Shown piece by piece: positions 7,294 to 22,821 of a stretch of 64,000 nucleotides of DNA. The stretch's first letter is position 1; the number at the start of each line of letters is the position of its first letter. The notes under the pieces are model-generated. The model saw only the letters and a list, made by a program, of their open reading frames with translations, made no database searches and was not told the DNA's origin. Origin of the DNA: an uncultured Paracoccaceae bacterium (GTDB lineage: Bacteria > Pseudomonadota > Alphaproteobacteria > Rhodobacterales > Rhodobacteraceae); the NCBI GenBank assembly GCA_947493255.1, contig CANLQK010000001.1, forward strand, positions 124,001 to 188,000, in the 5' to 3' direction. The translations under genes and the position numbers were made by a program.

Positions 7294-7328
7294 AGTAGAC
7301 AGAAAAACTGCGATAGGGCAACCGTGAT

Positions 7329-9236: not shown

Positions 9237-9247
9237 CTGCAGTGCAG
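9237..9247. promoter_or_regulatory. PhaR operator, upstream copy, before phaP
   Basis: CTGCAGTGCAG is a perfect match to CTGC-N3-GCAG, the motif reported for PhaR repressors of Paracoccus and Rhodobacter relatives. It lies 9 bp upstream of the putative -35 of phaP. Confidence 0.75.
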
Positions 9248-9255
9248 AAAAAAAC

Positions 9256-9284
9256 TTGAAATGCTGCAGTGCAGCACGTAAGTT
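9256..9284 (+). promoter_or_regulatory. Candidate sigma-70 promoter of phaP
   Basis: TTGAAA at 9256-9261 and TAAGTT at 9279-9284 are separated by exactly 17 bp. The second PhaR motif fills the spacer, so bound repressor would block RNA polymerase. Confidence 0.55.
9264..9274. promoter_or_regulatory. PhaR operator, downstream copy, in the phaP promoter spacer
   Basis: A second perfect CTGCAGTGCAG, starting 27 bp after the first and lying between the putative -35 and -10 boxes of phaP. Confidence 0.75.
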
Positions 9285-9342
9285 GATTGCAGACGCAGAA
9301 ACGCCGGGATGAGCCGGCACAGAAATTCTAAGGAGCGAGCCA

Positions 9343-9792: not shown

Positions 9793-9848
9793 GCGCGGGC
9801 TTAACGCCTGGCACCATCTCCTCCCAATCGGTGCCGACGTTTAAATAG

Positions 9849-9885
9849 GGCATACCGTTCCTCCCGACGGTATGCCTTTTTCTTT
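9849..9885 (+). terminator. Rho-independent terminator after phaP
   Basis: A 10-bp stem (9849-9858 with 9867-9876) with an 8-nt pyrimidine-rich loop is followed by TTTTTCTTT. It separates the highly expressed phaP from phaR. Confidence 0.88.
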
Positions 9886-9901
9886 GGGACCTTTCTTTTT
9901 G

Positions 9902-9934
9902 CTGCGATGCGGCCTAGGCTTCTCTGCAGCGCAA
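9902..9934. promoter_or_regulatory. Two imperfect PhaR sites before phaR
   Basis: CTGCGATGCGG (9902-9912) and CTGCAGCGCAA (9924-9934) each match CTGC-N3-GCAG in seven of the eight fixed positions. They begin 22 bp apart, just ahead of the phaR ribosome site. They suggest weaker autoregulation than at phaP. Confidence 0.5.
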
Positions 9935-9956
9935 CAAATGTCTGGGAGGGCGACCA

Positions 9957-10505
9957 TTGGCCAACACATCACAACCTCTGCTGATCAAGCGATATGCGAG
10001 CCGGCGTCTGTATAACACAGAGACCAGTGATTATGTCACTTTGGAAGACATCGCTACGTTTATAAGGGACGGGCGAGAGGTGCAGATTGTGGACCTTAAG
10101 TCAGGCGATGATCTGACGCGGCAGTACCTTTTGCAGATCATCGCAGAGCATGAAAGCCGTGGAGAAAGCGTGTTGCCAGTTGATGTGTTGACGAATTTGG
10201 TTCGCTCTTACACATCGCAAAGCATGTCTGTGGTGCCCCAGTTTTTGGCGCAGTCGTTCGAAATGCTGCAAAGCGGTCAGTCCAAAATGATGGAAAACAT
10301 GGGGTCTATGAACCCGCTGACCCAGATGCCGGGGTTTGAGGCGATGAAGGCCCAGCAAGAGGCGTTCATGAAGGCGATGACAGGTGGGATGATGCCCAGT
10401 AGTACACCGCCGGCTGCCTCTAGTTCTGAAAAAGAAGAAGGCCTTGATGATATTAAGGCTGAGTTGGCGGCGTTGCAGGAAAAGTTGTCCAAACTTGCTA
10501 AGTAA
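9957..10505 (+). CDS. phaR: Polyhydroxyalkanoate synthesis repressor
   Basis: A 182-residue repressor that binds both PHA granules and DNA and releases phasin expression once polymer accumulates. The N-terminal DNA-binding domain is unmistakable (KRYASRRLYNTETSDYVTLE, then IRDGREVQIVDLKSGDDLTR). The middle is the PHB-accumulation regulatory region (LPVDVLTNLVRSYTSQSMS), followed by a Met-rich segment and a short C-terminal coiled coil. The start is TTG at 9957, with a GGGAGGG ribosome site 6 bp before it; the conserved reading begins there and no ATG fits. Confidence 0.94.
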   Translation: MANTSQPLLIKRYASRRLYNTETSDYVTLEDIATFIRDGREVQIVDLKSGDDLTRQYLLQIIAEHESRGESVLPVDVLTNLVRSYTSQSMSVVPQFLAQSFEMLQSGQSKMMENMGSMNPLTQMPGFEAMKAQQEAFMKAMTGGMMPSSTPPAASSSEKEEGLDDIKAELAALQEKLSKLAK

Positions 10506-10609
10506 GAATTTCCACAGTTTGCTTTGAGTAAAACTGAAAATCTAACATGATTGTTTACGTTTGAGGTGTGAACGTAGACATATCTTGGGCGCATCTTAAG
10601 GATGGGAAA

Positions 10610-11572
10610 ATGGCGAACACATCTGGCAGGATCACGCTTTGGAATATCGAGGTGTTTGTAGCTACGGCTGAGGAAATGTCGATCTCTGCAGCTGCGAAAC
10701 GTCTGAAAACATCGGCGGCGACGGTGTCGCAACAGCTGACATCGCTAGAAGGTGCCATTGGAACCGCATTGTTGAACCGGTCTGCGCGGCCTGTGACGAT
10801 GACGAACGCCGGCGAGATGTTTTTTCGCCGCGCCAATGCGATTTTGAACGAAGCAGAACAAGCCCGTGCGGAGCTTGCGATTTCGGACTTGAGCCGGTTG
10901 ATGCGATTGCGTCTGGGGATGATCGAGGATTTCGATGCCGACGTGACGCCGCGGTTGTTGGAAGAAATGGGTACGGAGTTACGGTCGTGCCAGTTTTTGT
11001 TGGAAACGGGGGCGTCGCACAGCCTGTTTAGCCTGCTTGAGGCGCGTAGCCTTGATATGATTGTTGCCAGCGAGATTGGAACTGCAGCAGATTGGATGGA
11101 AGTCCATCCGTTGATGGAAGAACCCATTGTTGCAGCCTTGCCAAAGGGCGCTGCGAAGGAAGGCGATGTTTCGCGACAGCTGCGCCGTTTGCCGTTTGTG
11201 CAATACACGACACGTCACCACATGGGCCGGTTGATTTCTGACCATCTGGCGCGCCAAAACCTATCCCTGTCTGGGCGGTTTGAACTGGATAGCTATCACG
11301 CAATTATGGCGATGGTTGCCGGTGGCGCAGGGTGGACCATTTTGACGCCATTGGGGTGGCGGCGCGCGCACCGGTTCCGCGAACAAGTAGATTTGGTGCC
11401 ATTGCCGTTTGCGCCTTTGACGCGCCGTATTTCACTAACAGCGCGCCGTGGTGTGTTGGGTGAAATGCCAGCGGAAGTCGCCGGAAAACTGCGTGGCATT
11501 CTAAAGGATCTGATCGTTGACCCAGCGTTAGAGCAGGCCCCTTGGCTGGAAGACCAGATGAAGATTTTCTAA
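10610..11572 (+). CDS. LysR-family transcriptional regulator
   Basis: A 320-residue LysR-type regulator. The winged helix is at residues 8-66 (SISAAAKRLKTSAATVSQQL, then NRSARPVTMTNAGEMFFRRA), followed by a full effector domain. A GTG at 10568 is an alternative start, but the ATG at 10610 has AAGGATGGG just before it. The gene is convergent with the DegT aminotransferase gene and overlaps its end by 4 bp, so it closes the amine-type operon region. Whether it controls that operon or something else cannot be told from position. Confidence 0.87.
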   Translation: MANTSGRITLWNIEVFVATAEEMSISAAAKRLKTSAATVSQQLTSLEGAIGTALLNRSARPVTMTNAGEMFFRRANAILNEAEQARAELAISDLSRLMRLRLGMIEDFDADVTPRLLEEMGTELRSCQFLLETGASHSLFSLLEARSLDMIVASEIGTAADWMEVHPLMEEPIVAALPKGAAKEGDVSRQLRRLPFVQYTTRHHMGRLISDHLARQNLSLSGRFELDSYHAIMAMVAGGAGWTILTPLGWRRAHRFREQVDLVPLPFAPLTRRISLTARRGVLGEMPAEVAGKLRGILKDLIVDPALEQAPWLEDQMKIF

Positions 11573-12750
11573 GCGGCCTTTGATGTTGCCAAGGTTTTGG
11601 CGAGGTCCAGCAGCAGGTCTGCAATGATATCGCATTCATCCAGTGAAAGTCGGGCAGGGAGACGCAGGTCGCAGGCGCGCATCAACATGGCGCGGGTCTG
11701 GGGAAGGTCGGGCGTATCGCCCAAGAACTGCCAGTTCCAGAATGCGCGTGCGTTATCGCGGCTTTGACCGAAGATTTGTACCTTGAGGCCACGGTCAGCG
11801 GCCTGTTGGGCAAAGGCCTGCGTTTGCGCGTCTGATACGTTGATCAGATTGAATTGAATGGAATCCGGCGCGCGGCATTCGCCGTTTAAGGGCGCGGGGA
11901 CGTGGAACAGGTCTGATGTGTTGAGGCGGGCCGCGACGTGGTCGTGGTTGCGCCGCCCGTTTGCCACACGGCGGGGAAGTTCGTCTAGTTGTGGACGGAT
12001 CACCGCAGCCGCGAGGTTGGATAGGCGCAAGTTGTACAATGGCAGCTGGTTTTGCCAGCGGTTCATGGCGTCTGCCGGAATGGCATGTTTCATCCATGTA
12101 TGTTCGTACGCACCCGACATGATGATGGCGCGTGCCGCCAGATCTGCATCGTCGGTGACCATAATGCCGCCTTCGCCTGCGTTAATCATTTTGTAGCTTT
12201 GGAAGCTGAAACACCCGATTGCGCCCAACGTGCCAATGTTCTGGCCGTTCCATGTGGTGCCAAGGCTGTGCGCTGCGTCTTCGACGACAGGCACATTGCT
12301 GGCCGCGCACAGGGCAATGATGGCGTCCATGTCTGATGTATGACCGCGCATGTGGCTGATGATGACGGCGTCCGCATCGGGGAGTTTTGCCGCGAAGTCG
12401 GACATGTCGATGCGGTAGTTATCCCCGCATTCGACCAACACTGGCACGCAGTCTGCGTGGACCACCGAAGATGGCACAGCGGCGAAGGTGAATGCGGGGA
12501 TCAAAACGCGTGCCCTTTCAGGGAGAGCCAGCGCTTTGAGAGACAGGAACAGAGCGGCCGAGCAGCTGGACACTGCGAGGGCATATTTTGCCCCCAACAT
12601 CTGCGCGAATTCTTGCTCCAATAAAGAAACCGGGGCCTGATCTGGGGCCGTGTAGCGGAACAGATCGGCGGACGCGAGGAGGCGGGTTACCTCTGACAAA
12701 GCGGAGTCGGGGATCGGTTCAGCGGCATAAAGATCAGGTAAAACAGGCAT
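11569..12750 (-). CDS. DegT/DnrJ/EryC1/StrS family PLP-dependent aminotransferase
   Basis: A 393-residue fold-type I aminotransferase of the DegT/DnrJ/EryC1/StrS group. The PLP lysine is Lys187 in FSFQSYKMINAGEGG, with VVEDAAHSLG before it. Family members usually aminate keto-sugars, but there is no sugar-nucleotide cluster here. The gene instead follows the FAD oxidase gene by 92 bp on the same strand, so it may process the carbonyl product of that oxidase. That role is inference. The ATG at 12750 was chosen over an upstream in-frame TTG at 12765. Confidence 0.82.
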   Translation of the reverse strand: MPVLPDLYAAEPIPDSALSEVTRLLASADLFRYTAPDQAPVSLLEQEFAQMLGAKYALAVSSCSAALFLSLKALALPERARVLIPAFTFAAVPSSVVHADCVPVLVECGDNYRIDMSDFAAKLPDADAVIISHMRGHTSDMDAIIALCAASNVPVVEDAAHSLGTTWNGQNIGTLGAIGCFSFQSYKMINAGEGGIMVTDDADLAARAIIMSGAYEHTWMKHAIPADAMNRWQNQLPLYNLRLSNLAAAVIRPQLDELPRRVANGRRNHDHVAARLNTSDLFHVPAPLNGECRAPDSIQFNLINVSDAQTQAFAQQAADRGLKVQIFGQSRDNARAFWNWQFLGDTPDLPQTRAMLMRACDLRLPARLSLDECDIIADLLLDLAKTLATSKAA

Positions 12751-12842
12751 ATTCAGCTTTTCCAAATTTAGAATTAAGGAAAGCTAACATGTTTTGGATG
12801 ACAAATCTATGACAGGATTTGTAATCGCATCGGGATCGCCCG

Positions 12843-14150
12843 TTACAGGCCGAGCCGGTCGCGAAGGGCGTACCATGTCATGGCCGCGGCAAGCAGCGGT
12901 GCGCGTAACATGGTTCCGCCGGGGAACGCGGGGGTGGGGAGGGATGCAAACACATCGAACCGGTCTGCTTGCCCCCGAACGGCTTCTGCCATGAGTTTCC
13001 CCGCGAATCCAGAATGGGCGACTCCGTGGCCAGAAAAGCCGCCTGCGCTAAGGATGTTTGGCGCGGTACGGGTGATGAGGGGCAAGCGGGTTTGGGTAAT
13101 GCCCAATGTGCCGCCCCAGACATAGTCGATTTTGACGTCGGTTAGTTGCGGGAACATGGTTTCGATCCGATGCCTGAGGGCTGGTTCAATGGTTTTGGGA
13201 AACCCAACCGAATAGTTTTCACGCCCACCAAACAGCAGGCGTTTATCGTCGGACAGGCGGAAGTAATTGACGACGAATTTGTCATCGGCGACGGCAATGT
13301 CTTCTGCCAAGACATCTGCCGCGCGCTCGCCCAAGGGTTCGGTTGCGGCAATAAAGGAATTGAGTGGCATGGTGCGGGCCGCGACGGGACGGGCAAGATT
13401 GGTCAGGTACCCATTGCCCGCAAGGATGACGAAATTGGCCGTGACGCGGCCTTGGCCCGTGGCAACGGTGGCGGGGTCGCCTTTGTCGATGCGGTGGACT
13501 TCGGAGCGTTCGAAAATGCGCACGCCAGCGCGTTCGGCAGCAGCGGCCAGCCCAAGGGCGTAGCGCAACGGGTGGATATGGCCGGCGCCACGGTCGATCA
13601 AACCACCTGCATATTTGGGGGATTTGACGATGTCTTGAAAGGCGTCGCGGGTCAGCGGGTGAATGTCTTTGTAGCCGTAGGTGCGGCGCAAGTATTCAAC
13701 ATCATCGCGCAAGGCGCGGGCTTCTACCGCATCATAGGCACCGTGGGCCACACCGGGTTTGAACTGTGCATCTGGTGCATGGGCAGAGAGGCGAGATTTG
13801 AGGAGGGTTTTTGCCTCTTCTGACATGTCCCAAAGGGCGCGGGCGGGGCCGCTGCCCAATTTTGCCGATAGCCAACGTTGGTCTTTGTTGAACCCGCTGC
13901 CCACCTGACCGCCATTGCGGCCCGATGCGCCCCAGCCTGCGCGGTGCGCGTCTAACACGACCACGTCCATACCCGCTTCGGCCAGTTCGAGCGCTGCCAT
14001 TAACCCAGTGTAGCCAGCCCCAACGACACAGACATCTGTCTTGATTTGCCCGCGAAGGGCTGGGCGTTCGGGGGGAATGTTGGCGGTTGCCGCGTAATAG
14101 CTGTCTGGAAAGGTGGCTGGGCGGTCGTTCCGGTAAAGCGGGTTCGACAT
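12843..14150 (-). CDS. FAD-dependent oxidoreductase, DAO family (PuuB-like)
   Basis: A 435-residue flavoprotein of the DAO/glycine-oxidase family. The Rossmann FAD site is VVGAGYTGLMAALELAE (about residues 42-58), followed by GASGRNGGQ and a C-terminal SAGGFSGHGVAHSGFAGKL flavin-contact region. Closest in kind are gamma-glutamylputrescine oxidases (PuuB/OrdL), which oxidise the free amine end of a gamma-glutamyl diamine to an aldehyde and release H2O2. The neighbours (two glutamine-synthetase-like ligases and an amidotransferase) favour that chemistry. Its start overlaps the stop of the next gene upstream by 1 bp. Confidence 0.85.
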   Translation of the reverse strand: MSNPLYRNDRPATFPDSYYAATANIPPERPALRGQIKTDVCVVGAGYTGLMAALELAEAGMDVVVLDAHRAGWGASGRNGGQVGSGFNKDQRWLSAKLGSGPARALWDMSEEAKTLLKSRLSAHAPDAQFKPGVAHGAYDAVEARALRDDVEYLRRTYGYKDIHPLTRDAFQDIVKSPKYAGGLIDRGAGHIHPLRYALGLAAAAERAGVRIFERSEVHRIDKGDPATVATGQGRVTANFVILAGNGYLTNLARPVAARTMPLNSFIAATEPLGERAADVLAEDIAVADDKFVVNYFRLSDDKRLLFGGRENYSVGFPKTIEPALRHRIETMFPQLTDVKIDYVWGGTLGITQTRLPLITRTAPNILSAGGFSGHGVAHSGFAGKLMAEAVRGQADRFDVFASLPTPAFPGGTMLRAPLLAAAMTWYALRDRLGL

Positions 14151-15268
14151 TAGGGCGCCTCGCGCAGGTCGTAGTAGTTTAGGTCGTACCGTTCAGACGT
14201 TTGTGCCGTAGGACGGGTCGAGCGGTAAAAAGGCCCATCGACCTTAAGAAAATAGCAATCCACACAGGTGGTTTGCAGCCGTGATGTAACGAAGTCTTCG
14301 AATTGTGCGTCTACGTCGAATTCCATCAACGTGGCGGCGGTAATTGCGTCGTAAGCGGCGTCCGACAGGGTGTCGATGCCGCTGATTTCAACAGAAATCG
14401 GCAAGAACCGCGCATCCGGGAAGGCAATCGGTTGCCCGCCGGCTGTTACAAACTGCCCGTTGTCTTTGTCGGCCAGATAGGCGGGATGAAGGCGTTGCAT
14501 GTCGACCACGCGAATGGATGCGCCTTCGGGAAGCTGCGCGTTCACGGCGTCGCGGATATTGGCTTCGAATGTAGCACGGTCGAAACTTTCGGCGGATTGT
14601 ATGACAGCCGTGGGCAGGGAGATGGTGAGTTTGGGTGTGATCGCATTTGCCGGAAAATCATTGCGGGGACGTTGATTTAACAACATGAAGTTCGGGTTTT
14701 CCGAGATAGCCAGAATGGTTTCGAGGTATAGCCCATGGTCATCGAAGGTGTCGTTGACCAGCTGATAGGGCGTGGCGTTGTCTAACAGGCCAGCGTGTTC
14801 AACATCGGGGGTGTCCGCAAAGCTGCCACAGGCGGTGTTGGTGCAAGACACGGACGCAATAAGGCTGTCGCGGCGAAACACCTGCAGAACAGTTTCTTCT
14901 GGGTTGGCCCCTGCCAGTGAAAGGGCAATGCTGCCTGCCAGCTGTCCGGCTGTTGTTTCTGTGTTGACGTAAACCTGGTCCTTGGCGGCACGCAAAGCCG
15001 CCTGATCGCGCACAATGACGCTGCTGCCATCTGGGCCAACGCCGTTGTAGATGACTGTGATGTCGCCCTGATCAAAGTCGATCTCACGCAGATAATACAG
15101 CTTTTCGGCTTCGGGTGTTTCGGGCACTTCCGGGGCAGGCGCTGTTGCCGCAACAGGCGTTTGCGCGATTTGCGGGACATCGCTTTCAGAACCGCGTGCA
15201 AGGTAGAAGGCACCAAACGCAAACGCGGCGCCTATGAAAAAGACAAGAAAACTGGCAATTCTAATCAT
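14150..15268 (-). CDS. Unknown membrane-anchored protein in the amine operon
   Basis: A 372-residue protein I do not recognise. Residues 5-25 form one hydrophobic segment (signal anchor), then a Pro/Ala-rich linker to about residue 55. A soluble domain follows that would face the periplasm. It carries two Cys pairs, C-T-N-T-A-C near 142-147 and C-V-D-C near 337-340, which could form disulfides or bind a metal. It is translationally coupled on both sides, with a 4-bp overlap to the upstream ligase gene and 1 bp to the oxidase gene, so it belongs to the pathway unit. No enzyme motif was found. Confidence 0.7.
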   Translation of the reverse strand: MIRIASFLVFFIGAAFAFGAFYLARGSESDVPQIAQTPVAATAPAPEVPETPEAEKLYYLREIDFDQGDITVIYNGVGPDGSSVIVRDQAALRAAKDQVYVNTETTAGQLAGSIALSLAGANPEETVLQVFRRDSLIASVSCTNTACGSFADTPDVEHAGLLDNATPYQLVNDTFDDHGLYLETILAISENPNFMLLNQRPRNDFPANAITPKLTISLPTAVIQSAESFDRATFEANIRDAVNAQLPEGASIRVVDMQRLHPAYLADKDNGQFVTAGGQPIAFPDARFLPISVEISGIDTLSDAAYDAITAATLMEFDVDAQFEDFVTSRLQTTCVDCYFLKVDGPFYRSTRPTAQTSERYDLNYYDLREAP

Positions 15269-16617
15269 ACATTTAACAACAGATGTTCACGTTCCCATGG
15301 GCTGATGACTTGTAGGAATTCTTCGTATTCTGCCCGTTTTACAATGGTGTAGACCCGCGCGAAGTCGGGGCCTAGCACATCATGCATTGCCTCATTGGCA
15401 TCAAAGAGGTCAAGGGCCGTCCAAAGACCTTGCGGAAGTTCGCCGTCGCCCTCGTAGGCGTCGCCTTCGAACCGTTTGTCGGCCCACAGACCTTGTTTGA
15501 TCCCAAGGTAACCACACGCGAGCGAAGCCGCGATGCACAGGTAGGGGTTACAATCCATGCCGGCCAGCCGGTTTTCGATGCGCCGTGCAATTGGGTCAGA
15601 CAGGGGAACGCGCAAACCTGTTGTGCGGTTGTCGCGCGCCCACGAGAGGTTGATAGGCGCTGCATGGTCTTTGACATAACGCCGGTAGCTGTTCACGTAT
15701 GGGGCCATAACAGCCACGACGGACGGCAGGTGGGTTTGCAGCCCGCCAATAAACTGGAAAAACGCATCCGTTTCGCCACCCTGTGGGCCGGAAAAAATGT
15801 TGTTCCCATCCGCATCCAGAATGGAGTGGTGGATGTGCATCGCGCTGCCGGGTTCACCTTCGATGGGTTTGGCCATGAAGGTGGCGAAACAATTGTGTTT
15901 TAGCGCGGCCTCCTTCAGCAGACGTTTGAAAAAGAACACTTGGTCGGCCAGTTCCACGGGGTCGCCGTGGTTGAGGTTGATTTCAAGCTGACCAGAGCCG
16001 CCTTCTTGGGTGATGCCATCGATTTCGAAACCTTGGATTTCGGCGAACTCATAGATGTCATCGATGACGGGGCCATAGTCATCTACGGCGGTCATGGAAT
16101 AGGCTTGCCGCGCGGCAGCAGGGCGGCCCGAACGTCCGATCATAGGTTCAATCGGTTTGGTTGGGTCTGTGTTGGGCGCGACGAGGAAAAATTCCATTTC
16201 CGGTGCAACGACAGGCGTCCAGCCTTCTTTCTTGTACAGATCTACAACGCGTTTGAGCACATTGCGCGGGCTGAACTGGATGGGGTCGCCTTGTTGGTTG
16301 TAGGCGTCATGGATGACCTGAAGGGTGCCATCCGCAGCCCATGGCGCGGCTGTGGCGGTGGTGTAATCTGGTTTCAGGATCATGTCGGGTTCGGTGAAAC
16401 CCGCATCGCCTGCGGCTTCGCCCCAGCCCCCCGTCAGCGTTTGAAAGAAGATGGATTCAGGCAGGTGGAACTGAGTTTGCTTTTCCCATTTGGCGGCGGG
16501 CACGGCCTTGCCGCGTGCGATTCCGGGCAAATCAGAGATCATGCATTCGACTTCGTCTAGACGGTTCGCATCTAGGTAGTCGCGGGCCGGTTGGGGAATT
16601 TTTTTGGTCCAGCTCAT
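15265..16617 (-). CDS. Glutamine-synthetase-family ligase (PuuA-like), copy 1
   Basis: A 450-residue enzyme of the glutamine synthetase superfamily. The catalytic-domain signatures are readable: PEMEFFL metal-binding Glu region, SGQLEINLNHGDP, GSAMHIHHS and NSYRRYVKDH. Members of this branch ligate glutamate to an amine other than ammonia (gamma-glutamylputrescine synthetase and relatives). The shortened N-terminal beta-grasp and the operon context exclude a housekeeping GlnA. The gene overlaps the amidotransferase gene upstream by 4 bp and the unknown gene downstream by 4 bp. The amine substrate is not readable. Confidence 0.88.
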   Translation of the reverse strand: MSWTKKIPQPARDYLDANRLDEVECMISDLPGIARGKAVPAAKWEKQTQFHLPESIFFQTLTGGWGEAAGDAGFTEPDMILKPDYTTATAAPWAADGTLQVIHDAYNQQGDPIQFSPRNVLKRVVDLYKKEGWTPVVAPEMEFFLVAPNTDPTKPIEPMIGRSGRPAAARQAYSMTAVDDYGPVIDDIYEFAEIQGFEIDGITQEGGSGQLEINLNHGDPVELADQVFFFKRLLKEAALKHNCFATFMAKPIEGEPGSAMHIHHSILDADGNNIFSGPQGGETDAFFQFIGGLQTHLPSVVAVMAPYVNSYRRYVKDHAAPINLSWARDNRTTGLRVPLSDPIARRIENRLAGMDCNPYLCIAASLACGYLGIKQGLWADKRFEGDAYEGDGELPQGLWTALDLFDANEAMHDVLGPDFARVYTIVKRAEYEEFLQVISPWEREHLLLNV

Positions 16618-17291
16618 ATGCGTTGTTCCTTGAAAAAGGTTCCAATTTGTTTGGCCAGCCGCAAATTGTCGTTGTCTTTGCCCAAGTTGGATTTCGCGGT
16701 TTCGATCAATGCAGGTGGCACAGTGCCAGCGCGCGCCTGAATTAGCCCATCGATCATTGGGTCGCCAAATTCAGGATGGGCTTGCAAAGTAAAGACGCGG
16801 TTGTCGTAAACCAGTGCAGCGTTTTCGCAAAAATCGTTGCAGGCAAGGGGTGTTGCGTTTTCAGGGCGCTGAACGACCTGATCTTGGTGCCATGCATTCA
16901 GGGACACCTGTTCGCCCTGCCAGTCGTAGGTTTGGCGGCCAACGGCCCAACCGCCATCGAATTTTTCGACCTTCCCGCCCAAGGCCTGTGCGATGATTTG
17001 GTGGCCAAAACAGATGCCGACAAGGGGGCGCGCGGTCGCGTAGATGTCGCGGATCAAGGTTTCGAGCTGGCCGATCCACGGCAGGTCTTCGTACGCGCCG
17101 TGTTTGGACCCAGTGATCAGCCAACCATCGCAGTCGGTTGGGGAATCCGGGAATGCGTCATCAACGACAGCGTATGTTTCGAAGGAAAAATCTTGACCAT
17201 CGAGCAGGCGCATAAAGAAGGTGTTTACGTCGCCCAATTCGTCACGGACCTCGTCCGGAGCGTGGCCAGTTTGCAGAATTCCGATTTTCAT
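16614..17291 (-). CDS. Class I glutamine amidotransferase domain protein
   Basis: A 225-residue stand-alone GATase1 protein with an intact triad: Cys94 in GICFGHQ, His172 and Glu174 in QAHPEF. In amine pathways such proteins hydrolyse a gamma-glutamyl amide. PuuD does this for gamma-glutamyl-GABA, and AtdA2/TdnT-type proteins accompany gamma-glutamylanilide synthase. The nucleophile motif GICFGHQ is the GuaA-like form rather than the Arg-containing motif typical of PuuD, so the exact role is open. It lies between two glutamine-synthetase-like genes on the same strand. Confidence 0.88.
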   Translation of the reverse strand: MKIGILQTGHAPDEVRDELGDVNTFFMRLLDGQDFSFETYAVVDDAFPDSPTDCDGWLITGSKHGAYEDLPWIGQLETLIRDIYATARPLVGICFGHQIIAQALGGKVEKFDGGWAVGRQTYDWQGEQVSLNAWHQDQVVQRPENATPLACNDFCENAALVYDNRVFTLQAHPEFGDPMIDGLIQARAGTVPPALIETAKSNLGKDNDNLRLAKQIGTFFKEQRI

Positions 17292-17358
17292 GAAGCACCG
17301 ATGTTTGTGGTTTGGTTCACATTAGTCCGGCATGGCGCGCCACACAAGGAGCGAGACG

Positions 17359-18687
17359 TTAGACCGTGTCGAGGTACAGATCGATGCGTTCTTCGGGGCT
17401 GAGATCGGCGAAGGCTTGGTGTTCTTGGCGTTTTGTGGCCACCAGATTGCGAATGAGTTCGGCTGGAAAAATCCGCGCGATTTGCGGGTCGTTTTCAAAG
17501 AGGTCAATCGCGGTGGCCCAATCGCCTGGCAATTGCGGCAGGCGTTGATCGTAGGCGTTTCCGGTGATGGGCGCAGGTGGCATTTGCGCGTCTTCGATAC
17601 CGGTAAGGGCGGCACCCAGAATAGCGGCGAGCATGAGGTAGGGGTTTACGTCACCCCCAGCGACACGGTGTTCGATGCGACGGCCCTTGTGGTGCCCACC
17701 AGGAACGCGGACGGCGGCGGTGCGGTTTTCATAGGCCCAACAGATGGATGTGGGCGCATGGGCGTTGGGGACCAGTCGGTCGTATGAATTGCCGTGTGGG
17801 GCCATGATCAAGGCGCTGGGTTTGAGGGCATTCATGCAGCCCGCAATGGCGTGATGCAGGGTATCTGTGCCCTCTGGCCCGCCATTGTCAAAAATGTTGT
17901 TTCCATCACTGTCCAACACCGAGAAATGCACATGCATGCCGTTGCCGGAATATTCAGGATAGGGTTTTGCCATAAAGGACGCCGCGAACCCGTGCTGTCG
18001 GGCCAAACCGCGCACCAGCAGTTTAAACAGCCATGCATCATCTGCGGCTTTCATAGCGGGGCCGTGGGACAGGTTAATCTCGAACTGGCCAAGGCCCGCT
18101 TCGGAAATCGCGCTTTCGGCGGGGATGTCCATGGCTTCGGCACCGTCATAAAGGGCCGTAAAAAAGGTATCAAAGGCATCAAGGGCGCGCAGGGATAGGA
18201 TTTCGGCACCGGGGCGGCGTTTGCCAGAACGTGGCGAGGGGACAACGCGCAGGTCTTTGCCGCTGTCATCCACCAGATAGAATTCCAGCTCAGTTCCGAC
18301 GATCGGGGTTAGGCCACGGTCCGCATAACGTTTGAGGACGGCAGCAAGAGCATGGCGCGGGTCGCCGGTGAAGGGGCTGCCGTCTTCGCGAAACATCCAC
18401 ATCGGTAACAACGCGGACGGGCTGTCGAGCCACGGCATGGGCATAAACCCACGATCTGTCGGCAGGCAGACGCCATCGGGGTCACCTGCTTCGAACACCA
18501 GCGGGCTGTCGTCGATGTCTTCGCCCCAGATATCGAGGTTGAGGACAGACAATGGAAAGCGCGTTCCGTCGTCTTCGATTTTTTGCGCAAACCGCGACGG
18601 AATGCGTTTGCCGCGCGCGACGCCGTTTAGGTCAGACGCGGCAACACGAATGGTTTTGATGTCGGGGTTTTCATGGAGCCATGACAT
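17359..18687 (-). CDS. Glutamine-synthetase-family ligase (PuuA-like), copy 2
   Basis: A 442-residue glutamine-synthetase-superfamily ligase, distinct from copy 1 but with the same core motifs (GTELEFYLVDD, LGQFEINLSHGP, GNGMHVHFSVLD, NSYDRLVPNAH, then the ENRTAAVRVPGG region). Both copies open with MSW and share the DLNGVARGK / DLPGIARGK type N-terminus, so they are paralogues. Two ligases with one amidotransferase suggest two amine substrates or a heteromer. It lies 6 bp after the permease gene and 67 bp ahead of the amidotransferase gene. Confidence 0.88.
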   Translation of the reverse strand: MSWLHENPDIKTIRVAASDLNGVARGKRIPSRFAQKIEDDGTRFPLSVLNLDIWGEDIDDSPLVFEAGDPDGVCLPTDRGFMPMPWLDSPSALLPMWMFREDGSPFTGDPRHALAAVLKRYADRGLTPIVGTELEFYLVDDSGKDLRVVPSPRSGKRRPGAEILSLRALDAFDTFFTALYDGAEAMDIPAESAISEAGLGQFEINLSHGPAMKAADDAWLFKLLVRGLARQHGFAASFMAKPYPEYSGNGMHVHFSVLDSDGNNIFDNGGPEGTDTLHHAIAGCMNALKPSALIMAPHGNSYDRLVPNAHAPTSICWAYENRTAAVRVPGGHHKGRRIEHRVAGGDVNPYLMLAAILGAALTGIEDAQMPPAPITGNAYDQRLPQLPGDWATAIDLFENDPQIARIFPAELIRNLVATKRQEHQAFADLSPEERIDLYLDTV

Positions 18688-18693
18688 GGAACA

Positions 18694-19506
18694 TCACCGG
18701 ATGATTTGAGGGCGGAAACGGAACTTTGGTTTGGCGTCTTGGGGCAGGTGGCGGTTTAGTCGGGTTCCGATGCGGCCCATGATTGTGATGATCAACAGCG
18801 TTAGCAAGATGAAATAAAACGCCAAAATCGGGTAGGGCACGAAAGGGTTGAACGTTTTGTCAGCAAAGAAGCTGGCATAGTATAGGGCGTCGCCCCGTTG
18901 TTGCCATGCGGGGAAACCGCTGAAAAACACCAAGGTCGTGGAGTGAAACAGGAAGATACCTTCGTTCGTGTAGGCGGGCCATGCCAGACGCAACATGGTG
19001 GGCCAGATCACGCGGCGAAACCGTGGCCAGCCGGATAGGCCGTAGGCGTCGGCGGCTTCGATGTCGCCTTTGGGGATGGATTGAAGCGCGCCGTAAAATA
19101 TCTCGCCTGTGTAGGCGGATGTATTGAGAAACAGCACGATCAATGCACCAAGCCAAGCAGCGGTGAACGGGTCGAAAAAGGCGTATTGGCCTTTGAGTGA
19201 TAGGAAAAAGAAGTAGGCAAAAAAGAACTGGATAAACAGCGGCGAGCCACGGAACAAAAAGATGAACCAAGCGCTGAGTTTATGGATGATGCGATTGTCT
19301 GATGCTTTGCCCACGGCCACGGCTGTTGCCAAAAAGAACCCAGTCACTAGGGCAACGACGCCGAAGTAGACATTCCAGATCATGCCAGATCCGATCAGAG
19401 TGAACTGTTGGCACAGTGTAAACCCTTCGCGGGGCAAAATACGTTCGCCAAACCCGATGGATCGGAAGGCGTAGTCGGATATTGTTTGAATGCAGTCTTC
19501 CATCAC
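18694..19506 (-). CDS. ABC transporter permease, polar amino acid type (HisM-like)
   Basis: A 270-residue inner-membrane permease of the HisM/GlnP type with about five hydrophobic segments. The ATPase-docking EAA loop (SIPKGDIEAADAYGLSGWPR) is in the middle. It pairs with the permease gene at 19503, overlapping it by 4 bp, and with the binding protein and ATPase further upstream. These importers take up polar amino acids, opines or small charged amines. The glutamine-synthetase-like ligase gene follows 6 bp later, so import and gamma-glutamylation are probably transcribed together. Confidence 0.9.
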   Translation of the reverse strand: MMEDCIQTISDYAFRSIGFGERILPREGFTLCQQFTLIGSGMIWNVYFGVVALVTGFFLATAVAVGKASDNRIIHKLSAWFIFLFRGSPLFIQFFFAYFFFLSLKGQYAFFDPFTAAWLGALIVLFLNTSAYTGEIFYGALQSIPKGDIEAADAYGLSGWPRFRRVIWPTMLRLAWPAYTNEGIFLFHSTTLVFFSGFPAWQQRGDALYYASFFADKTFNPFVPYPILAFYFILLTLLIITIMGRIGTRLNRHLPQDAKPKFRFRPQIIR

Positions 19507-20339
19507 GCGGCCGCCTTTCGTTGGGCTTCGCCAGCGGCGGTTGCTTGGCCTTTGGTGAGGCGCCGCATGATGCGGTCGAGCACGATTTCAGAAACGCGGG
19601 TAAAGCCGAGGTAGAACACCAGCAGCACGAGGAAATACCACATGCGCCAGTCCCCGTGCGGGTAATCGGTGAAGCGTGGGGTTTTGGTGCCGCCAAGTTC
19701 ACGTGCCCAATAGACGATGTCTTCGACGCCAAGCAGGAACAGCAGGGGGGTGGCTTTGATAAGGACCATCCAAAGGTTCCCAAGGCCCGGCAGTGCATAA
19801 ACCCACATTTGCGGAACGACGATGCGCCAGAATGTTTGGCGGCGGGTCATGCCGTAGGCTTCGGCGGTTTCAAGCTGTGCCTTCGGAACAGCCCGCATGG
19901 CACCGAAAATGACGTTAGCTGCAAAGGCCCCGAACACGATGGCAAAGGTGAACACCGCGATCATGAAGCCATAAGTTTCATGGACCCATTGTGGCGCAGC
20001 CCCAAGCGGCATTTTTGCCTGTTGGCACACGATAAAGTCGTTGCCTTGGCGGATGGTATCGGGCCAGTCGGGGCATTTGGCGTAGTGCCGCAGCACTTCA
20101 ATGCCTTGGTCTAACGCGATGACAAAAAACAAGAAAAACGCAATATCAGGTACGCCGCGCACGATGGCGATATAGGTTTTGCCCAACCATGACAGAGGCG
20201 CAAAGGGGCTGCGGGCCGCCATGGCGCCACCAAAGCCGAACGACAGTGCCAGTGGCGCGGTGATGGCCAACAACAACAGGACCGTTCCAAAGGACACATA
20301 GAACCCCATGTGCTTGCCGGTTGTCAGATAACAGGCCAT
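19503..20339 (-). CDS. ABC transporter permease, polar amino acid type (HisQ-like)
   Basis: A 278-residue permease, partner of the gene at 18694. The EAA loop reads AVPKAQLETAEAYGMTRRQT. An RGVPDIAFFLFF segment after the second hydrophobic stretch is typical of HisQ-type subunits. A 60-residue periplasmic loop lies between hydrophobic segments 2 and 3. The gap to the binding-protein gene upstream (111 bp) contains a short GC-rich hairpin at 20418-20434, which may lower permease expression relative to the binding protein. Confidence 0.9.
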   Translation of the reverse strand: MACYLTTGKHMGFYVSFGTVLLLLAITAPLALSFGFGGAMAARSPFAPLSWLGKTYIAIVRGVPDIAFFLFFVIALDQGIEVLRHYAKCPDWPDTIRQGNDFIVCQQAKMPLGAAPQWVHETYGFMIAVFTFAIVFGAFAANVIFGAMRAVPKAQLETAEAYGMTRRQTFWRIVVPQMWVYALPGLGNLWMVLIKATPLLFLLGVEDIVYWARELGGTKTPRFTDYPHGDWRMWYFLVLLVFYLGFTRVSEIVLDRIMRRLTKGQATAAGEAQRKAAA

Positions 20340-20450
20340 CCACTGGAAGGTTTCTAGGGTGCTTGGGTCGGTGCAAAAACTGAAGATGACGGGCCTCTGG
20401 TTCGTAAAGATGTGCCCCGCCCCGAAACAGGGCGAGACACGAAGATTAAG

Positions 20451-21176
20451 TTATTCGAAAGTGGAGGCCACTTCCCATTTTTCGATCAATGCGTTCAGGG
20501 ATCCATCTTCTTTCATGGATGTGATGGCCGCATTGAACGCGTCTTTCAGCTCTGTGTCGCTTTCGCGGATGCCCATGCCGACACCGCCACCCAATGTGAC
20601 CTGCTGTTCGAGCATGACCAATTCTTCTTGGCCTTCCAGCGCTGCCGCCAAGAAGGAATCGTCAGCGAAGACGGCATCTGCTTCGCCTGCGCGAACGGCT
20701 GCCAGCGTTTCTTCTGGTGTTGCGAATTCAACAAGTGTCCAACCTTGGTCAGCAATGTAGGCAGCTTGGATGGTGCCTGTTTGTGCTGCAACAACACCAG
20801 CGGCAGGATCAACGTCTGTGGACAAGGCCGCGAAAGATGTTGGGTCGGCTGGCGTGTATTCTTGTGTGAAGTCAATCACTTCGTCGCGCTCATCCGTGAT
20901 GGACATGCCTGCGATGATTGTGTCGTAGTTGCCGGACACGAGGTTCGGGATGATGCTGTCCCATTCGTTGGTGACCCATTCGCAGGTCAACTCGGCGCGT
21001 GCGCACAGCTCGTCGCCGAGTTCACGTTCAAAGCCATCGACTTCGCCAGCGTCGTTAAGGAAGTTCCATGGTGCGTATGCACCTTCGGTGCCCATACGGA
21101 CAACGGAATGGCCATCGGCCAATGCCATACCAGCGGTCAACGCAAGGGCGGCGGATGTCATGATCAGGTTTTTCAT
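20451..21176 (-). CDS. ABC transporter substrate-binding protein, amino acid/amine type
   Basis: A 241-residue periplasmic binding protein. Residues 1-20 are a cleavable signal (MKNLIMTSAALALTAGMALA). The mature part has the HisJ/ArtJ family signatures: MGTEGAYAPWNFLNDAGEVD near the start, FERELGDELC, then DSIIPNLVSGNYDTIIAGMS and ADAVFADD. It would capture a polar amino acid, opine or charged amine. I chose the ATG at 21176 because an AGGAGAG ribosome site precedes it and the signal peptide begins there. Gene order is ATPase, binding protein, permease, permease, then the catabolic genes. Confidence 0.9.
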   Translation of the reverse strand: MKNLIMTSAALALTAGMALADGHSVVRMGTEGAYAPWNFLNDAGEVDGFERELGDELCARAELTCEWVTNEWDSIIPNLVSGNYDTIIAGMSITDERDEVIDFTQEYTPADPTSFAALSTDVDPAAGVVAAQTGTIQAAYIADQGWTLVEFATPEETLAAVRAGEADAVFADDSFLAAALEGQEELVMLEQQVTLGGGVGMGIRESDTELKDAFNAAITSMKEDGSLNALIEKWEVASTFE

Positions 21177-21257
21177 TTTTCTCTCCTGTTGGGAACGACT
21201 CACATGGCCGTTTAACTGCCGCGTAGGATTGACCGCATGGTCAAGAAAGGCAATGGG

Positions 21258-22028
21258 TTAGACTGTTTGCGTGACGGAAAGGAAACCGCGCAGCCGCTCG
21301 GATTTAGGTGCGCCGAAAAGTTCAGCGGGTGGGCCTTGTTCTTCGATCAATCCTTGGTGGAGGAAGACGACATGATCCGAGATGTCGCGGGCCATTTTCA
21401 TATCGTGGGTCACGACCAACATGGTGCGCCCTTCGGCTGCGAGATCTTTGATAACCTTGACCACCTCTTGTTCCAGTTCGGGGTCGAGCGCGGATGTGGG
21501 TTCGTCAAAGAGAAGGGCCTTTGGTTCCATGCATAGGCCACGCGCGATGGCGGCTCGTTGTTGCTGGCCGCCTGACAGTTGTGCCGGGTAGACATCGCAT
21601 TTGTCGCCAATTCCCACCTTATCTAGGTAGCGGCGCGCGCTTTCTTCTACTTCGGCTTTGTCGCGTTTGAGGACCGTAACGGGGGCTTCCATCACGTTTT
21701 CCAGAATGGTCATATGGGACCAGAGGTTGAACTGTTGAAACACCATCGACAGGTTTGTGCGGATGCGGATCATTTGAGCACGGTCGCCGGGTTGGCGGTT
21801 TGCGCCTTTGCCTTTCCAGACCACCGGTTCACCATTGAACAAGATGTCGCCTTGCTGGCTGTCTTCCAACAGATTGGCACAGCGCAGAAGCGTAGATTTA
21901 CCAGATCCCGAAGACCCGATCAGGCTGATCACGTGCCCTTGGGGCGCAGTGATGTCGACACCCTTCAAAACCTCCAGGTCGCCATAGGATTTGTGAAGGT
22001 TGCGGATTTCGATAACAGGATCAGTCAT
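21258..22028 (-). CDS. ABC transporter ATP-binding protein, polar amino acid type
   Basis: A 256-residue ATPase of the HisP/GlnQ type. Walker A is GSSGSGKST, the signature motif LSGGQQQR, Walker B LLFDEPTSALDPE and the switch histidine VVTHDMKMA. It powers the permease pair at 18694 and 19503. It is the first gene of the transporter block, 34 bp downstream of the PhnD-like gene, so transcription may start further up. Length and motifs are complete. Confidence 0.95.
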   Translation of the reverse strand: MTDPVIEIRNLHKSYGDLEVLKGVDITAPQGHVISLIGSSGSGKSTLLRCANLLEDSQQGDILFNGEPVVWKGKGANRQPGDRAQMIRIRTNLSMVFQQFNLWSHMTILENVMEAPVTVLKRDKAEVEESARRYLDKVGIGDKCDVYPAQLSGGQQQRAAIARGLCMEPKALLFDEPTSALDPELEQEVVKVIKDLAAEGRTMLVVTHDMKMARDISDHVVFLHQGLIEEQGPPAELFGAPKSERLRGFLSVTQTV

Positions 22029-22062: not shown

Positions 22063-22821
22063 TTAGTTTTTCGCCAATTGCAACGGTCGCGTTGGCGCTG
22101 GGGCCAGCGGAATGTCATATGCCTGATCAGGAAGCGTTTTCAGGCCGTATAGGCGCATGTCATCGCGGTTTTGGGGCGAAAGGGCGGTAATTGCTGCATC
22201 CAAAGCGGTGCGCAGCTGCGCGGGGTCGTGATGTTTGGTCGTAACGAACGTCATGGACGGGGACAGCCCAGTGCGGCCGATAACCCGCAGGTCTTTCGCG
22301 GCGGGTTCCCATTTGCACAACATGTCCCATGTAACGGCGTCAATCGCGGCCAGATCGGCGCGGTTTTCGACGATGGCACGCATGCTTTCTACATGAGCGC
22401 CCGTTTGCAGGGTGCTGTGAAATTGAAGGCCTTGTTCGGTGATCCGGGCAAGGGGCGCACCCCAACCGGATTGGGACAAGGCATCGTTATATGCAAACCG
22501 GCCAAGGCAGGCGGGGGCGAGGCCGCGGTCAGCGTCTTGGGCGCGTACGACGAACACGGAATGGTAATAGCCTGCCGGGGTGTCCGGCAGCTGGTGGTCG
22601 CCACATGCGATCCTCACCAACCGGTCTTTGAACGCTGAACGGTAGGGGAGGTTGCAAATTTGCCCCAACAGCAAATCAGGGTGCGCCCAAGTGGCATCAT
22701 AGGCGATTGCGCGTTCCAATGTGGCTGGGCCATAGCCCAATGTGTCGCGAAAAGCGGTCCAGAATGCATTATGGGCCGCCCGATTTTCAGGGCGGTCATA
22801 CATGGGCAGGCTGGCGATCAT
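22063..22821 (-). CDS. PhnD/SsuA-type binding-protein-like protein without signal peptide
   Basis: A 252-residue protein resembling the phosphate/phosphonate (PhnD-type) periplasmic binding fold: SLPMYDRPENRAAHNAFWTA, a QICNLPYRSAF segment, and ENRADLAAIDAVTWDML near the middle, where PhnD proteins read G.ADAA..D. There is no signal peptide or lipobox, so it is predicted cytoplasmic and not a normal transporter component. It overlaps the upstream TerB gene by 4 bp and precedes the ABC ATPase gene by 34 bp. A sensor or enzyme role is possible. The function is unknown. Confidence 0.7.
   Translation of the reverse strand: MIASLPMYDRPENRAAHNAFWTAFRDTLGYGPATLERAIAYDATWAHPDLLLGQICNLPYRSAFKDRLVRIACGDHQLPDTPAGYYHSVFVVRAQDADRGLAPACLGRFAYNDALSQSGWGAPLARITEQGLQFHSTLQTGAHVESMRAIVENRADLAAIDAVTWDMLCKWEPAAKDLRVIGRTGLSPSMTFVTTKHHDPAQLRTALDAAITALSPQNRDDMRLYGLKTLPDQAYDIPLAPAPTRPLQLAKN

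What the first reader, a model, noticed from the sequence alone, without database searches (positions are those of the whole stretch)
12843..22028. Amine-type operon: transporter, two ligases, amidotransferase, oxidase and an unknown protein
A single minus-strand unit joins an amino-acid-type ABC importer to two glutamine-synthetase-family ligases, a stand-alone GATase1, a DAO-family oxidase and a DegT aminotransferase. This matches gamma-glutamylation routes (Puu, aniline Atd/Tdn type) but not any one exactly. The transporter is HisJ-like rather than a polyamine PotF type. The amidotransferase has a GuaA-like motif rather than the PuuD one. No aldehyde dehydrogenase is present. The true substrate may be new.
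Basis: partly seen in the sequence, partly recalled or inferred. Interest (0 to 1): 0.65.

Follow-up and report, generated by a model that had tools for sequence, protein, structure and literature searches.

The report
Glutamate-tagging operon with lysine-type importer
A nine-gene unit that looks built to import a lysine-like compound, tag an amine with glutamate, oxidise it and cut the tag off again; its core is shared by many marine Rhodobacteraceae, but what it degrades has not been tested.

Summary
Nine minus-strand genes (22028 down to 12843) form one tight unit: ATPase, binding protein, two permeases, GS-like ligase 2, amidotransferase, GS-like ligase 1, an orphan protein and a PuuB-type oxidase. 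The genome belongs with Octadecabacter/Pseudooctadecabacter. Minus the orphan, the unit recurs in the same order in many Rhodobacteraceae genera, often between pyrG and phaC. Both ligases keep nine of nine metal/glutamate/ATP residues checked but lose four of four ammonium-site residues, as PuuA and IpuC do. The oxidase is 42% identical to E. coli PuuB. The amidotransferase shows no BLAST match to PuuD; its best solved relative is gamma-glutamyl peptidase 1. The binding protein is 72% identical to 3I6V of Ruegeria (Silicibacter) pomeroyi, titled 'in complex with ly...' (lysine). A PotF-type locus with an aminotransferase and a second PuuB-like oxidase lies elsewhere in the genome. In one Aliiroseovarius plasmid a ligase-1 relative and a PuuB-like oxidase lie near gabT, a glutaryl-CoA-dehydrogenase-like gene and an aldehyde dehydrogenase. 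My reading: gamma-glutamylation catabolism of lysine or a lysine-derived C5 amine. An ordinary polyamine pathway is the main rival. The orphan is confined to this genus and a few relatives and fills a variable slot. New variant of a known kind; substrate untested.

The parts
21258..22028 (-). ABC importer ATPase, HisP-like (256 aa)
   Evidence: NCBIfam HisP model 329 bits, below its 466 cut-off; PF00005; a hit in 74 of 80 named loci
20451..21203 (-). Substrate-binding protein, LAO/His/opine type (GTG start at 21203; ATG possible at 21176)
   Evidence: PF00497 119 bits; best PDB chain 3i6v, 320 bits against 122 for the next; structure match Z 28.1, rmsd 2.1, 215 aligned, 71%; pocket positions invariant in 18 of 18 aligned SBPs, window included
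19503..20339 (-). ABC permease, HisQ/ArtQ-like (278 aa)
   Evidence: 76 of 80 loci
18694..19506 (-). ABC permease, HisM-like (270 aa)
   Evidence: 77 of 80 loci
17359..18687 (-). GS2: glutamine-synthetase-like gamma-glutamyl-amide ligase (442 aa), on the PuuA side of the tree
   Evidence: PF00120 315 bits; 35% to E. coli PuuA; ammonium-site residues lost; tree; between permease and GATase in 58 of 74 loci
16614..17291 (-). Class-I glutamine amidotransferase, gamma-glutamyl-peptidase type (C94, H172, E174): presumed gamma-glutamyl hydrolase
   Evidence: PF00117 47 bits; PF07722 (Peptidase_C26) 21.0 bits, just over its 20.5 cut-off with no stretch passing on its own; best PDB match 9k7i gamma-glutamyl peptidase 1; best BLAST E to E. 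coli PuuD 0.23; residues
15265..16617 (-). GS1: glutamine-synthetase-like gamma-glutamyl-amide ligase (450 aa), in a clade with ligases next to PuuB-like oxidases
   Evidence: PF00120 340 bits; 35% to PuuA; 48% over 374 aa to an N-terminally truncated, unannotated Pseudomonas mendocina ligase frame between a Tn3 transposase and an aminotransferase plus polyamine SBP; residues
14150..15268 (-). Orphan protein (372 aa), N-terminal hydrophobic helix then a mixed alpha/beta region; in a variable slot; probably not part of the pathway
   Evidence: 0 Pfam and 0 NCBIfam hits; 6 of 292 order genomes; 12 of 80 loci; model pLDDT 80.6, pTM 0.60, best Foldseek E 0.012, best VIA Z 5.9
12843..14150 (-). DAO-family FAD oxidase of PuuB type (435 aa)
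   Evidence: PF01266 234 bits; 42% over 421 aa to E. coli PuuB, E 7e-109; tree; 72 of 80 loci
11569..12765 (-). DegT-family aminotransferase (TTG start, or ATG at 12750), optional neighbour, 77 bp after DAO
   Evidence: PF01041 205 bits; a hit in 31 of 80 loci; role unknown

Best explanation
A catabolic gamma-glutamylation operon fed by a lysine-type ABC importer. Step 1 (supported by fold, homology and pocket residues; transport not assayed): the LAO-type importer brings in a cationic alpha-amino acid, most likely L-lysine. Step 2 (ligase chemistry inferred from retained and lost active-site residues): GS1 and/or GS2 join glutamate through its gamma-carboxyl to an amine of lysine or of a lysine-derived C5 diamine. 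Step 3 (inferred from PuuB kinship): the DAO oxidises the remaining primary amine to an aldehyde that the glutamyl tag keeps from cyclising. Step 4 (inferred): an aldehyde dehydrogenase coded elsewhere makes the acid. Step 5 (inferred from fold): the gamma-glutamyl-peptidase-like GATase removes the tag, giving 5-aminovalerate (from cadaverine) or 2-aminoadipate (from lysine), which runs to glutaryl-CoA. The orphan protein and DegT are not needed.
For: SBP: 72% to 3i6v, which is 84-89% to the SBPs of the same operon in L138 and L140 (Ruegeria) and L137 (strain KLH11); 3i6v's title as printed reads 'from Silicibacter pomeroyi in complex with ly', cut there. Positions aligned to LAO D11, Y14, F52, S72, R77, Q122 and D161 are E, Y, W, S, R, Q and D in 18 of 18 SBPs (mapping, roles of LAO residues recalled). 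GS1 and GS2 keep the nine metal/glutamate/ATP residues checked and lose D50, S53, Y179 and E327, as do PuuA and IpuC (roles recalled). PuuB kinship. A polyamine-type importer is elsewhere in this genome: PotF relative 49% to E. coli's, with ATPase and two permease genes (by eye), a class-III aminotransferase and a second PuuB-like oxidase. C5 link: in one Aliiroseovarius plasmid a GS1 relative (54%) and a PuuB-like oxidase lie near gabT, an acyl-CoA dehydrogenase (PDB: best 4w9u 'Acyl-CoA dehydrogenase' 693 bits, then glutaryl-CoA dehydrogenases at 644) and an ALDH; this genome has that dehydrogenase at 78% identity. In Pseudosulfitobacter a GS2 relative (51%) and a PuuB-like oxidase lie beside an SBP annotated lysine/arginine/ornithine, two permeases and ggt. 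Phaeobacter inhibens on lysine labels cadaverine, 5-aminopentanoate, glutarate, pipecolate and 2-aminoadipate (PMC5653290, section 14).
Against: No enzyme or transporter here has been assayed. The lysine in 3i6v could be an additive, and SBPs of this family can be broad. No OKR-type decarboxylase and only one Orn/Arg/DAP-type decarboxylase, which reads as LysA, is in this genome, so the cadaverine branch needs a decarboxylase not recognised here. In P. inhibens 2-aminoadipate already has another source: pipecolate builds up when a plasmid with a candidate pipecolate oxidase is lost (PMC5653290, section 14). Close relatives of GS1 also sit near polyamine genes (P. mendocina; a potA cluster about 7 kb downstream in Azospirillum). 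The Aliiroseovarius link is one lineage (eight plasmid records, of which I looked at one), its oxidase is closer to the pot-locus paralogue (65%) than to the operon DAO (49%), its dehydrogenase is below the NCBIfam glutaryl-CoA cut-off shown (231 of 470 bits), and gabT also fits GABA. GS2 and the transporter stand alone at that locus in Paracoccus. One relative (L060) has the enzymes without the transporter. The ALDH is missing from the unit.
Confidence: 0.45

Rival explanations
1. An ordinary polyamine (putrescine/spermidine/cadaverine) gamma-glutamylation operon of Puu/Pau type. Polyamines enter through the separate PotF-type importer; this unit supplies the only GS-like amine ligases of the cell, and its LAO-type importer is an incidental or broad-range neighbour.
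For: GS1 and GS2 are the only PF00120 proteins besides GlnA found in the genome (3 matches), so a PuuB-like oxidase at the pot locus would depend on them if it acts on glutamylated amines. DAO 42% to PuuB. GS1 relatives include a Pseudomonas ligase frame beside an aminotransferase and a polyamine SBP. In 4 of 80 loci a class-III aminotransferase stands near the operon (one of the four family-tested). Ligase-GATase-ligase with transporter recalls spuI-spuA-spuB of Pseudomonas aeruginosa (order recalled; divergent spuABCDEFGH-spuI operons named in PMC10606097, passages).
Against: The importer genes are found with the ligases in 73 to 77 of 80 loci and keep a full alpha-amino-acid pocket in 18 of 18 SBPs; polyamines lack the carboxylate for it. 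In R. pomeroyi a potFGHI mutant grows 62-69% less on cadaverine, putrescine and spermidine (Delta OD, PMC10130141, passages with Table 1), so the polyamine importer is another one.
Confidence: 0.32
2. Catabolism of an opine or another N-substituted basic amino acid: the importer takes up an opine-like compound and the oxidase and ligases process it.
For: Octopine- and nopaline-binding proteins rank among the best structural and sequence relatives of the SBP.
Against: 3i6v is far closer (320 against 112 bits for the octopine protein); the DAO belongs with PuuB and nothing else in the unit looks like an opine oxidase subunit (by family lists).
Confidence: 0.1
3. Detoxification or nitrogen-assimilation unit in which amines are glutamylated and the nitrogen recovered without feeding carbon catabolism (GlnA2/3/4-like role).
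For: Ligases of this superfamily serve survival under polyamine stress and nitrogen supply in Streptomyces (PMC8998196 and PMC5403932, start of abstracts in the search listing).
Against: An oxidase and a hydrolase are found with the ligases in 72 and 77 of 80 loci, which points to breakdown.
Confidence: 0.08

Closest known systems
Puu pathway of Escherichia coli (puuPADRCBE)
   Same: Ligase, PuuB-type oxidase (42% identity over 421 aa) and a class-I amidotransferase fold for tag removal
   Different: Two ligases (each about 35% to PuuA); GATase has no BLAST match to PuuD (best E 0.23); PAAT-type ABC importer in place of PuuP; no PuuC, PuuE or PuuR in the unit
Pau/Spu system of Pseudomonas (spuI-spuA-spuB, pauA1-7, pauB1-4)
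   Same: Several ligases, an amidotransferase, oxidase and an ABC importer (from passages, and recall); GS1 is 48% over 374 aa to a truncated P. mendocina ligase frame beside an aminotransferase and a polyamine SBP
   Different: Importer is LAO-type and not SpuD/PotF-type; the class-III aminotransferase is at a separate pot locus in this genome; SpuA and the P. aeruginosa ligases themselves were not fetched, so GATase kinship to SpuA is untested
Lysine/arginine/ornithine (LAO) ABC importers, 3I6V of Ruegeria pomeroyi
   Same: Same fold, conserved amino-acid pocket; Ruegeria and KLH11 operon SBPs are 84-89% to 3i6v
   Different: Here the importer heads a gamma-glutamylation operon; the SBP falls below the NCBIfam LAO subfamily cut-off (173.5 of 256.35 bits)
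IpuC isopropylamine cluster (Paenarthrobacter plasmid pTC2)
   Same: GS-like ligase without the ammonium site, and a glutamine amidotransferase gene two genes on
   Different: 32-33% identity to the ligases; P450, ferredoxin and SDR in place of a DAO; no ABC importer in the stretch read

Membership tests
Glutamine synthetase (GlnA) | Ammonium-site residues D50, S53, Y179, E327 and NCBIfam GlnA cut-off | tested here: not met
   GS1 has P, I, A, A and GS2 P, V, I, H at these columns, while own GlnA keeps D, S, Y, E; TIGR00653 251 and 205 bits against a cut-off of 429
GS-like gamma-glutamyl-amide ligases (PuuA/PauA/IpuC superfamily) | Metal, glutamate and ATP residues kept, ammonium site lost | tested here: met
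   Nine of nine checked residues kept in both ligases, four of four ammonium-site residues lost (residue roles recalled)
PuuA (gamma-glutamylputrescine synthetase equivalog) | NCBIfam NF045547 cut-off of 650 bits | tested here: not met
   182 (GS1) and 189 (GS2) bits
GMAS / type III glutamate-ammonia ligase | NCBIfam TIGR03105 cut-off of 469.6 bits (that this model covers GMAS is recalled) | tested here: not met
   232 (GS1) and 208 (GS2) bits
Aniline ligases AtdA1/TdnQ | Close kinship to AtdA1/TdnQ | not tested
   No reference sequence was fetched
PuuB-type gamma-glutamyl-polyamine oxidases | Full-length homology to characterised PuuB | tested here: met
   42% over 421 aa, E 7e-109
PuuB-type gamma-glutamyl-polyamine oxidases | Oxidation of gamma-glutamylputrescine | not testable with these tools
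   Needs an assay
PuuD (gamma-glutamyl-GABA hydrolase) | BLAST-detectable homology to E. coli PuuD | tested here: not met
   Best E 0.23
PuuD (gamma-glutamyl-GABA hydrolase) | Peptidase_C26 (PF07722) domain, the Pfam family that I recall for PuuD | tested here: inconclusive
   21.0 bits, just over the 20.5 cut-off, residues 78-108 only and no stretch passing on its own; PF00117 scores 47 bits
Gamma-glutamyl-peptidase-like class-I GATases | PF00117 domain with Cys-His-Glu | tested here: met
   PF00117 47 bits against a cut-off of 22.8; C94, H172, E174; best PDB match gamma-glutamyl peptidase 1
LAO-type substrate-binding proteins | Family-3 SBP domain with carboxylate-binding Arg and ammonium-binding Asp | tested here: met
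   PF00497 119 bits; R106 and D181 invariant in 18 of 18
LAO-type substrate-binding proteins | NCBIfam TIGR01096 subfamily cut-off | tested here: not met
   173.5 of 256.35 bits
Puu cluster | Aldehyde dehydrogenase (PuuC) in the cluster | tested here: not met
   None among the ORFs; seven ALDH-type matches elsewhere in the genome at E <= 1e-20, best 40% to PuuC, one of the seven with an internal stop

The most novel reading that the evidence does not exclude
Lysine itself, not a diamine, is glutamylated: Rhodobacteraceae would extend the glutamyl-protecting-group trick of the Puu pathway to an alpha-amino acid. N-alpha-gamma-glutamyl-lysine would be oxidised at its epsilon amine by the PuuB-type DAO, made into gamma-glutamyl-2-aminoadipate by an aldehyde dehydrogenase coded elsewhere and freed by the GATase, a decarboxylase-free lysine route that avoids the cyclic piperideine. 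It would explain a lysine-type importer in a gamma-glutamylation operon in a genome where the two decarboxylase families searched gave only LysA but which has a glutaryl-CoA-dehydrogenase-like gene.
Probability: 0.15. Interest if true: 0.72.

Novelty: new variant of a known kind. Interest (0 to 1): 0.45.

Why it matters
The unit is a recurrent part of the chromosome in many Rhodobacteraceae, major consumers of dissolved organic nitrogen in the sea (recalled), yet my ten paper searches (open-licence papers only, long listings cut) listed no work on gamma-glutamylation in this family. If it serves lysine or C5 amines it fills a gap between measured lysine intermediates in Phaeobacter and genes, and gives a role to an importer whose R. 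pomeroyi binding protein was solved as 3I6V; the one paper that one search found for that code discusses another organism.

Tried and rejected
Rejected: (1) DegT and LysR as pathway members: optional (hits in 31 and 25 of 80 loci), and LysR is convergent with DegT. (2) The orphan protein as a key component: in operon context I found it only in Octadecabacter, Pseudooctadecabacter, Thalassorhabdomicrobium and one unnamed further genus (G182); other loci have other genes, or none, between GS1 and DAO. Of 71 loci with DAO downstream of GS1 the gap, by extrapolated alignment ends, is -4 to 12 nt in 37, 47-169 in 10 and 391 or more in 24. (3) Saccharopine route: three PF03435 matches of 24 to 33 bits, two of them over the cut-off; I read two of the three and by eye they look like a large dehydrogenase-like protein of another kind and an NmrA-type protein. 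The route is not excluded. (4) Identity of the R. pomeroyi 'opine/polyamine' transporter SPO2699-2702 (PMC9870897, passages) with this operon: SPO2697 is listed as a CoA-binding protein (PMC8319176, one passage), so the gene order does not fit; not settled.

Led nowhere: Rfam at gathering thresholds (0 matches); promoter and terminator scans; Foldseek and VIA for the orphan (best Foldseek E 0.012, best VIA Z 5.9), which neither show nor exclude a known fold; GATase neighbourhoods in Rhizobium and Neorhizobium; glutaryl-CoA dehydrogenase neighbourhood in this genome; GapMind paper PMC9007349 (passages). PMC8786288 (one passage) ascribes 3I6V to Anabaena variabilis, against the PDB title; I follow the title and the 84-89% identity to Ruegeria-group SBPs. 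The GS tree has long branches (IpuC, PuuA) and the DAO tree is rooted at its midpoint with weak support there, so neither proves orthology. The 20 neighbourhoods were chosen by me round GS2 or orphan hits, and the 80 are the best by GS1 (80 of 297 relatives found), so counts for those genes are biased upward; three genomes occur in both sets (contig lengths agree: L041/L069, L042/L063, L043/L062).


Full report
What is there. The stretch 12843-22028 holds nine minus-strand genes, read 22028 to 12843: HisP-like ATPase, family-3 substrate-binding protein, two permeases, GS-like ligase 2 (GS2), class-I GATase, GS-like ligase 1 (GS1), a 372-aa orphan and a DAO-family oxidase. Junctions are tight: four of the eight overlap and the longest gap is 111 nt. 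DegT follows 77 nt after DAO and meets a convergent LysR gene. The genome has 24 contigs and is 99.78% complete; three 'same genus' handles have contig lengths equal to those of Octadecabacter algicola, O. dasysiphoniae and Pseudooctadecabacter jejudonensis records.

How widespread. A GS2-like protein is in 276 of 292 genomes of the order at E <= 1e-80; the best matches listed are 67% or more identical (list cut); weaker ones may be paralogues. Of 20 neighbourhoods that I picked, 19 hold GS1 and GATase in order; 17 of those 19 hold DAO, 18 the importer and 18 GS2, and 12 show both pyrG and PHA-gene hits within the 20 kb. In the 80 named loci nearest by GS1 the counts of hits are GATase 77, permeases 77 and 76, ATPase 74, SBP 73, DAO 72, GS2 60, DegT 31, orphan 12. 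These are any tblastn hit at E <= 1e-5, a few of them weak (ATPase 35% in L132, DegT 28% in L070, LysR 25% in L116), and 12 of the 80 loci are shorter than 21 kb. GS2 lies between permease and GATase in 58 of the 74 loci where it can be judged. In Paracoccus ferrooxidans the pyrG locus holds only the importer and GS2. So the unit is a core with removable parts.

The ligases. GS1 and GS2 are 34% identical to each other and about 35% to E. coli PuuA. Against E. coli GlnA numbering both keep E129, E131, E212, E220, H269, E357, R321, R339 and R359 and lose D50, S53, Y179 and E327; PuuA, IpuC and two Sinorhizobium relatives show the same pattern, own GlnA keeps all thirteen (residue roles are recalled). 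Neither reaches the GlnA, PuuA or type III NCBIfam cut-offs. In the tree GS1 groups with ligases of S. meliloti and Aliiroseovarius (support 97/96), with those of Azospirillum, Shewanella and P. mendocina unresolved beside them; GS2 groups with ligases of S. meliloti, Thioclava, Loktanella and Pseudosulfitobacter (100/100) on the PuuA side (99/95). Of the 11 non-operon relatives that I put in the tree (E. coli, IpuC and GlnA apart), 8 sit beside a PuuB-like oxidase gene; Shewanella, P. mendocina and a transaminase-linked Pseudosulfitobacter ligase do not. I chose these relatives from the plasmid listings, so 8 of 11 is no survey.

Oxidase and hydrolase. DAO is 42% identical to PuuB over 421 residues. 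The GATase has no useful BLAST match to PuuD (E 0.23) and only a marginal PF07722 score (21.0 against 20.5); its best solved relative is gamma-glutamyl peptidase 1 (70 bits), an enzyme type that cuts gamma-glutamyl bonds (recalled). It keeps C94, H172 and E174.

The importer. The SBP's best solved relative by sequence is 3i6v (320 bits, next 122). A predicted model (pLDDT 81.2) matches it at Z 28.1, rmsd 2.1, 215 aligned, 71% identity; the next best chains score 22.9. The printed title is cut after 'in complex with ly'; I read lysine, also from recall. The 3i6v stretch is 84-89% identical to the operon SBPs of L137, L138 and L140 and 72% to the window's, so 3i6v is very likely the R. pomeroyi orthologue, though the R. 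pomeroyi chromosome itself was not at hand. Positions aligned to the LAO pocket are invariant in 18 of 18 SBPs, including the arginine and aspartate that hold an alpha-amino acid (alignment, roles recalled). A PotF relative lies elsewhere in the genome, 49% to E. coli PotF (424 bits, below the 636 of the PotF equivalog model), with ATPase and two permease genes (by eye), a class-III aminotransferase (PRK07480, 753 bits, over its cut-off; 'SpuC-type' is my label) and a second PuuB-like oxidase 50% identical to the operon DAO. In R. pomeroyi a potFGHI mutant grows 62-69% less on cadaverine, putrescine and spermidine (PMC10130141, passages).

The C5 clue. In the one Aliiroseovarius crassostreae plasmid that I read (of eight with the ligase) a GS1 relative (54%) and a PuuB-like oxidase are followed by a second DAO, an opposite-strand cupin gene, gabT, an acyl-CoA dehydrogenase and an ALDH. 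The dehydrogenase's best PDB match is named only acyl-CoA dehydrogenase (693 bits), the next ones glutaryl-CoA dehydrogenase (644 bits); no NCBIfam model reached its cut-off. This genome has it at 78%. Phaeobacter inhibens fed labelled lysine shows labelled cadaverine, 5-aminopentanoate, glutarate, pipecolate and 2-aminoadipate (PMC5653290, abstract, passages and section 14). The same section shows pipecolate building up when a plasmid with a candidate pipecolate oxidase is lost, so 2-aminoadipate there has a source other than glutamyl-lysine. Against the cadaverine branch: this genome has no OKR-type decarboxylase and one PF02784 protein, which by eye is LysA; of 11 same-genus genomes at least 99% complete, 7 have one PF02784 match and 4 more than one. 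Other decarboxylase types were not searched for.

Verdict on mechanism. Gamma-glutamylation, oxidation and deglutamylation is well supported by family logic. Lysine or a C5 derivative as substrate is a fair guess (about 0.45), ahead of plain polyamines (about 0.32), because the importer travels with the ligases and is a lysine-type importer. Which of the two ligases acts on what is unknown; loss of GS2 in some genera and its survival alone with the importer in Paracoccus suggest that they do different jobs.

The orphan protein. It has no Pfam or NCBIfam match and is in 6 of 292 order genomes, own genome included. One of these, G052, is a weak match (25%, E 7e-8) with no operon gene in the 20 kb round it. 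Its slot between GS1 and DAO is variable: 37 of 71 loci have DAO within 12 nt of GS1, and in 24 of those the two genes overlap by 4 nt (extrapolated ends), while other loci have another membrane-anchored protein (7 loci; the L076 copy has no Pfam or NCBIfam match) or, by eye, methyltransferase-like genes there. I count it as a passenger.

Literature. The ten searches listed no paper on gamma-glutamylation in Rhodobacteraceae; one search listed 15 of 103 papers and 12 of 20. They cover open-licence PubMed Central only, and the work on Phaeobacter amino-acid catabolism that PMC5653290 cites was not read.

Noticed in passing
window 22063-22821 (-): A PhnD-like (PF12974) protein that starts without an evident signal peptide (by eye), overlapping a TerB-like gene by 4 nt and ending 34 nt before the operon ATPase; a hit to it is in 45 of 80 relatives' loci.
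   Followed up: no
L177 (own genome C4:365000-382000), 3626-10717: Separate polyamine-type locus: PotF relative with ATPase and two permeases, class-III aminotransferase and a second PuuB-like oxidase, with no ligase in the stretch.
   Followed up: partly
L153, 7977-15662: Pseudosulfitobacter plasmid cluster with GS2-like ligase, PuuB-like oxidase, SBP annotated lysine/arginine/ornithine, two permeases, GntR and gamma-glutamyltransferase: a second pairing of an LAO-type importer with glutamylation genes.
   Followed up: partly
L061 4445, L062 4183, L063 4654, L085 4745 and others: A second SBP about 30% identical to the operon SBP lies between ATPase and SBP in several relatives and is absent from the window.
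   Followed up: no
L060 (G210:C1:2429000-2448900): Operon with GS2, GATase, GS1, DAO and DegT but without the ABC importer in that 20-kb stretch.
   Followed up: no
L176 (Pseudorhodobacter turbinis 1.58-Mb plasmid): GS1, GS2, GATase and DAO relatives lie together on a large plasmid, so the unit can sit on a secondary replicon.
   Followed up: no
L076 11320-12222 and six other loci: A different membrane-anchored protein, in L076 without Pfam or NCBIfam match, fills the slot between GS1 and DAO that the orphan fills in the window.
   Followed up: partly
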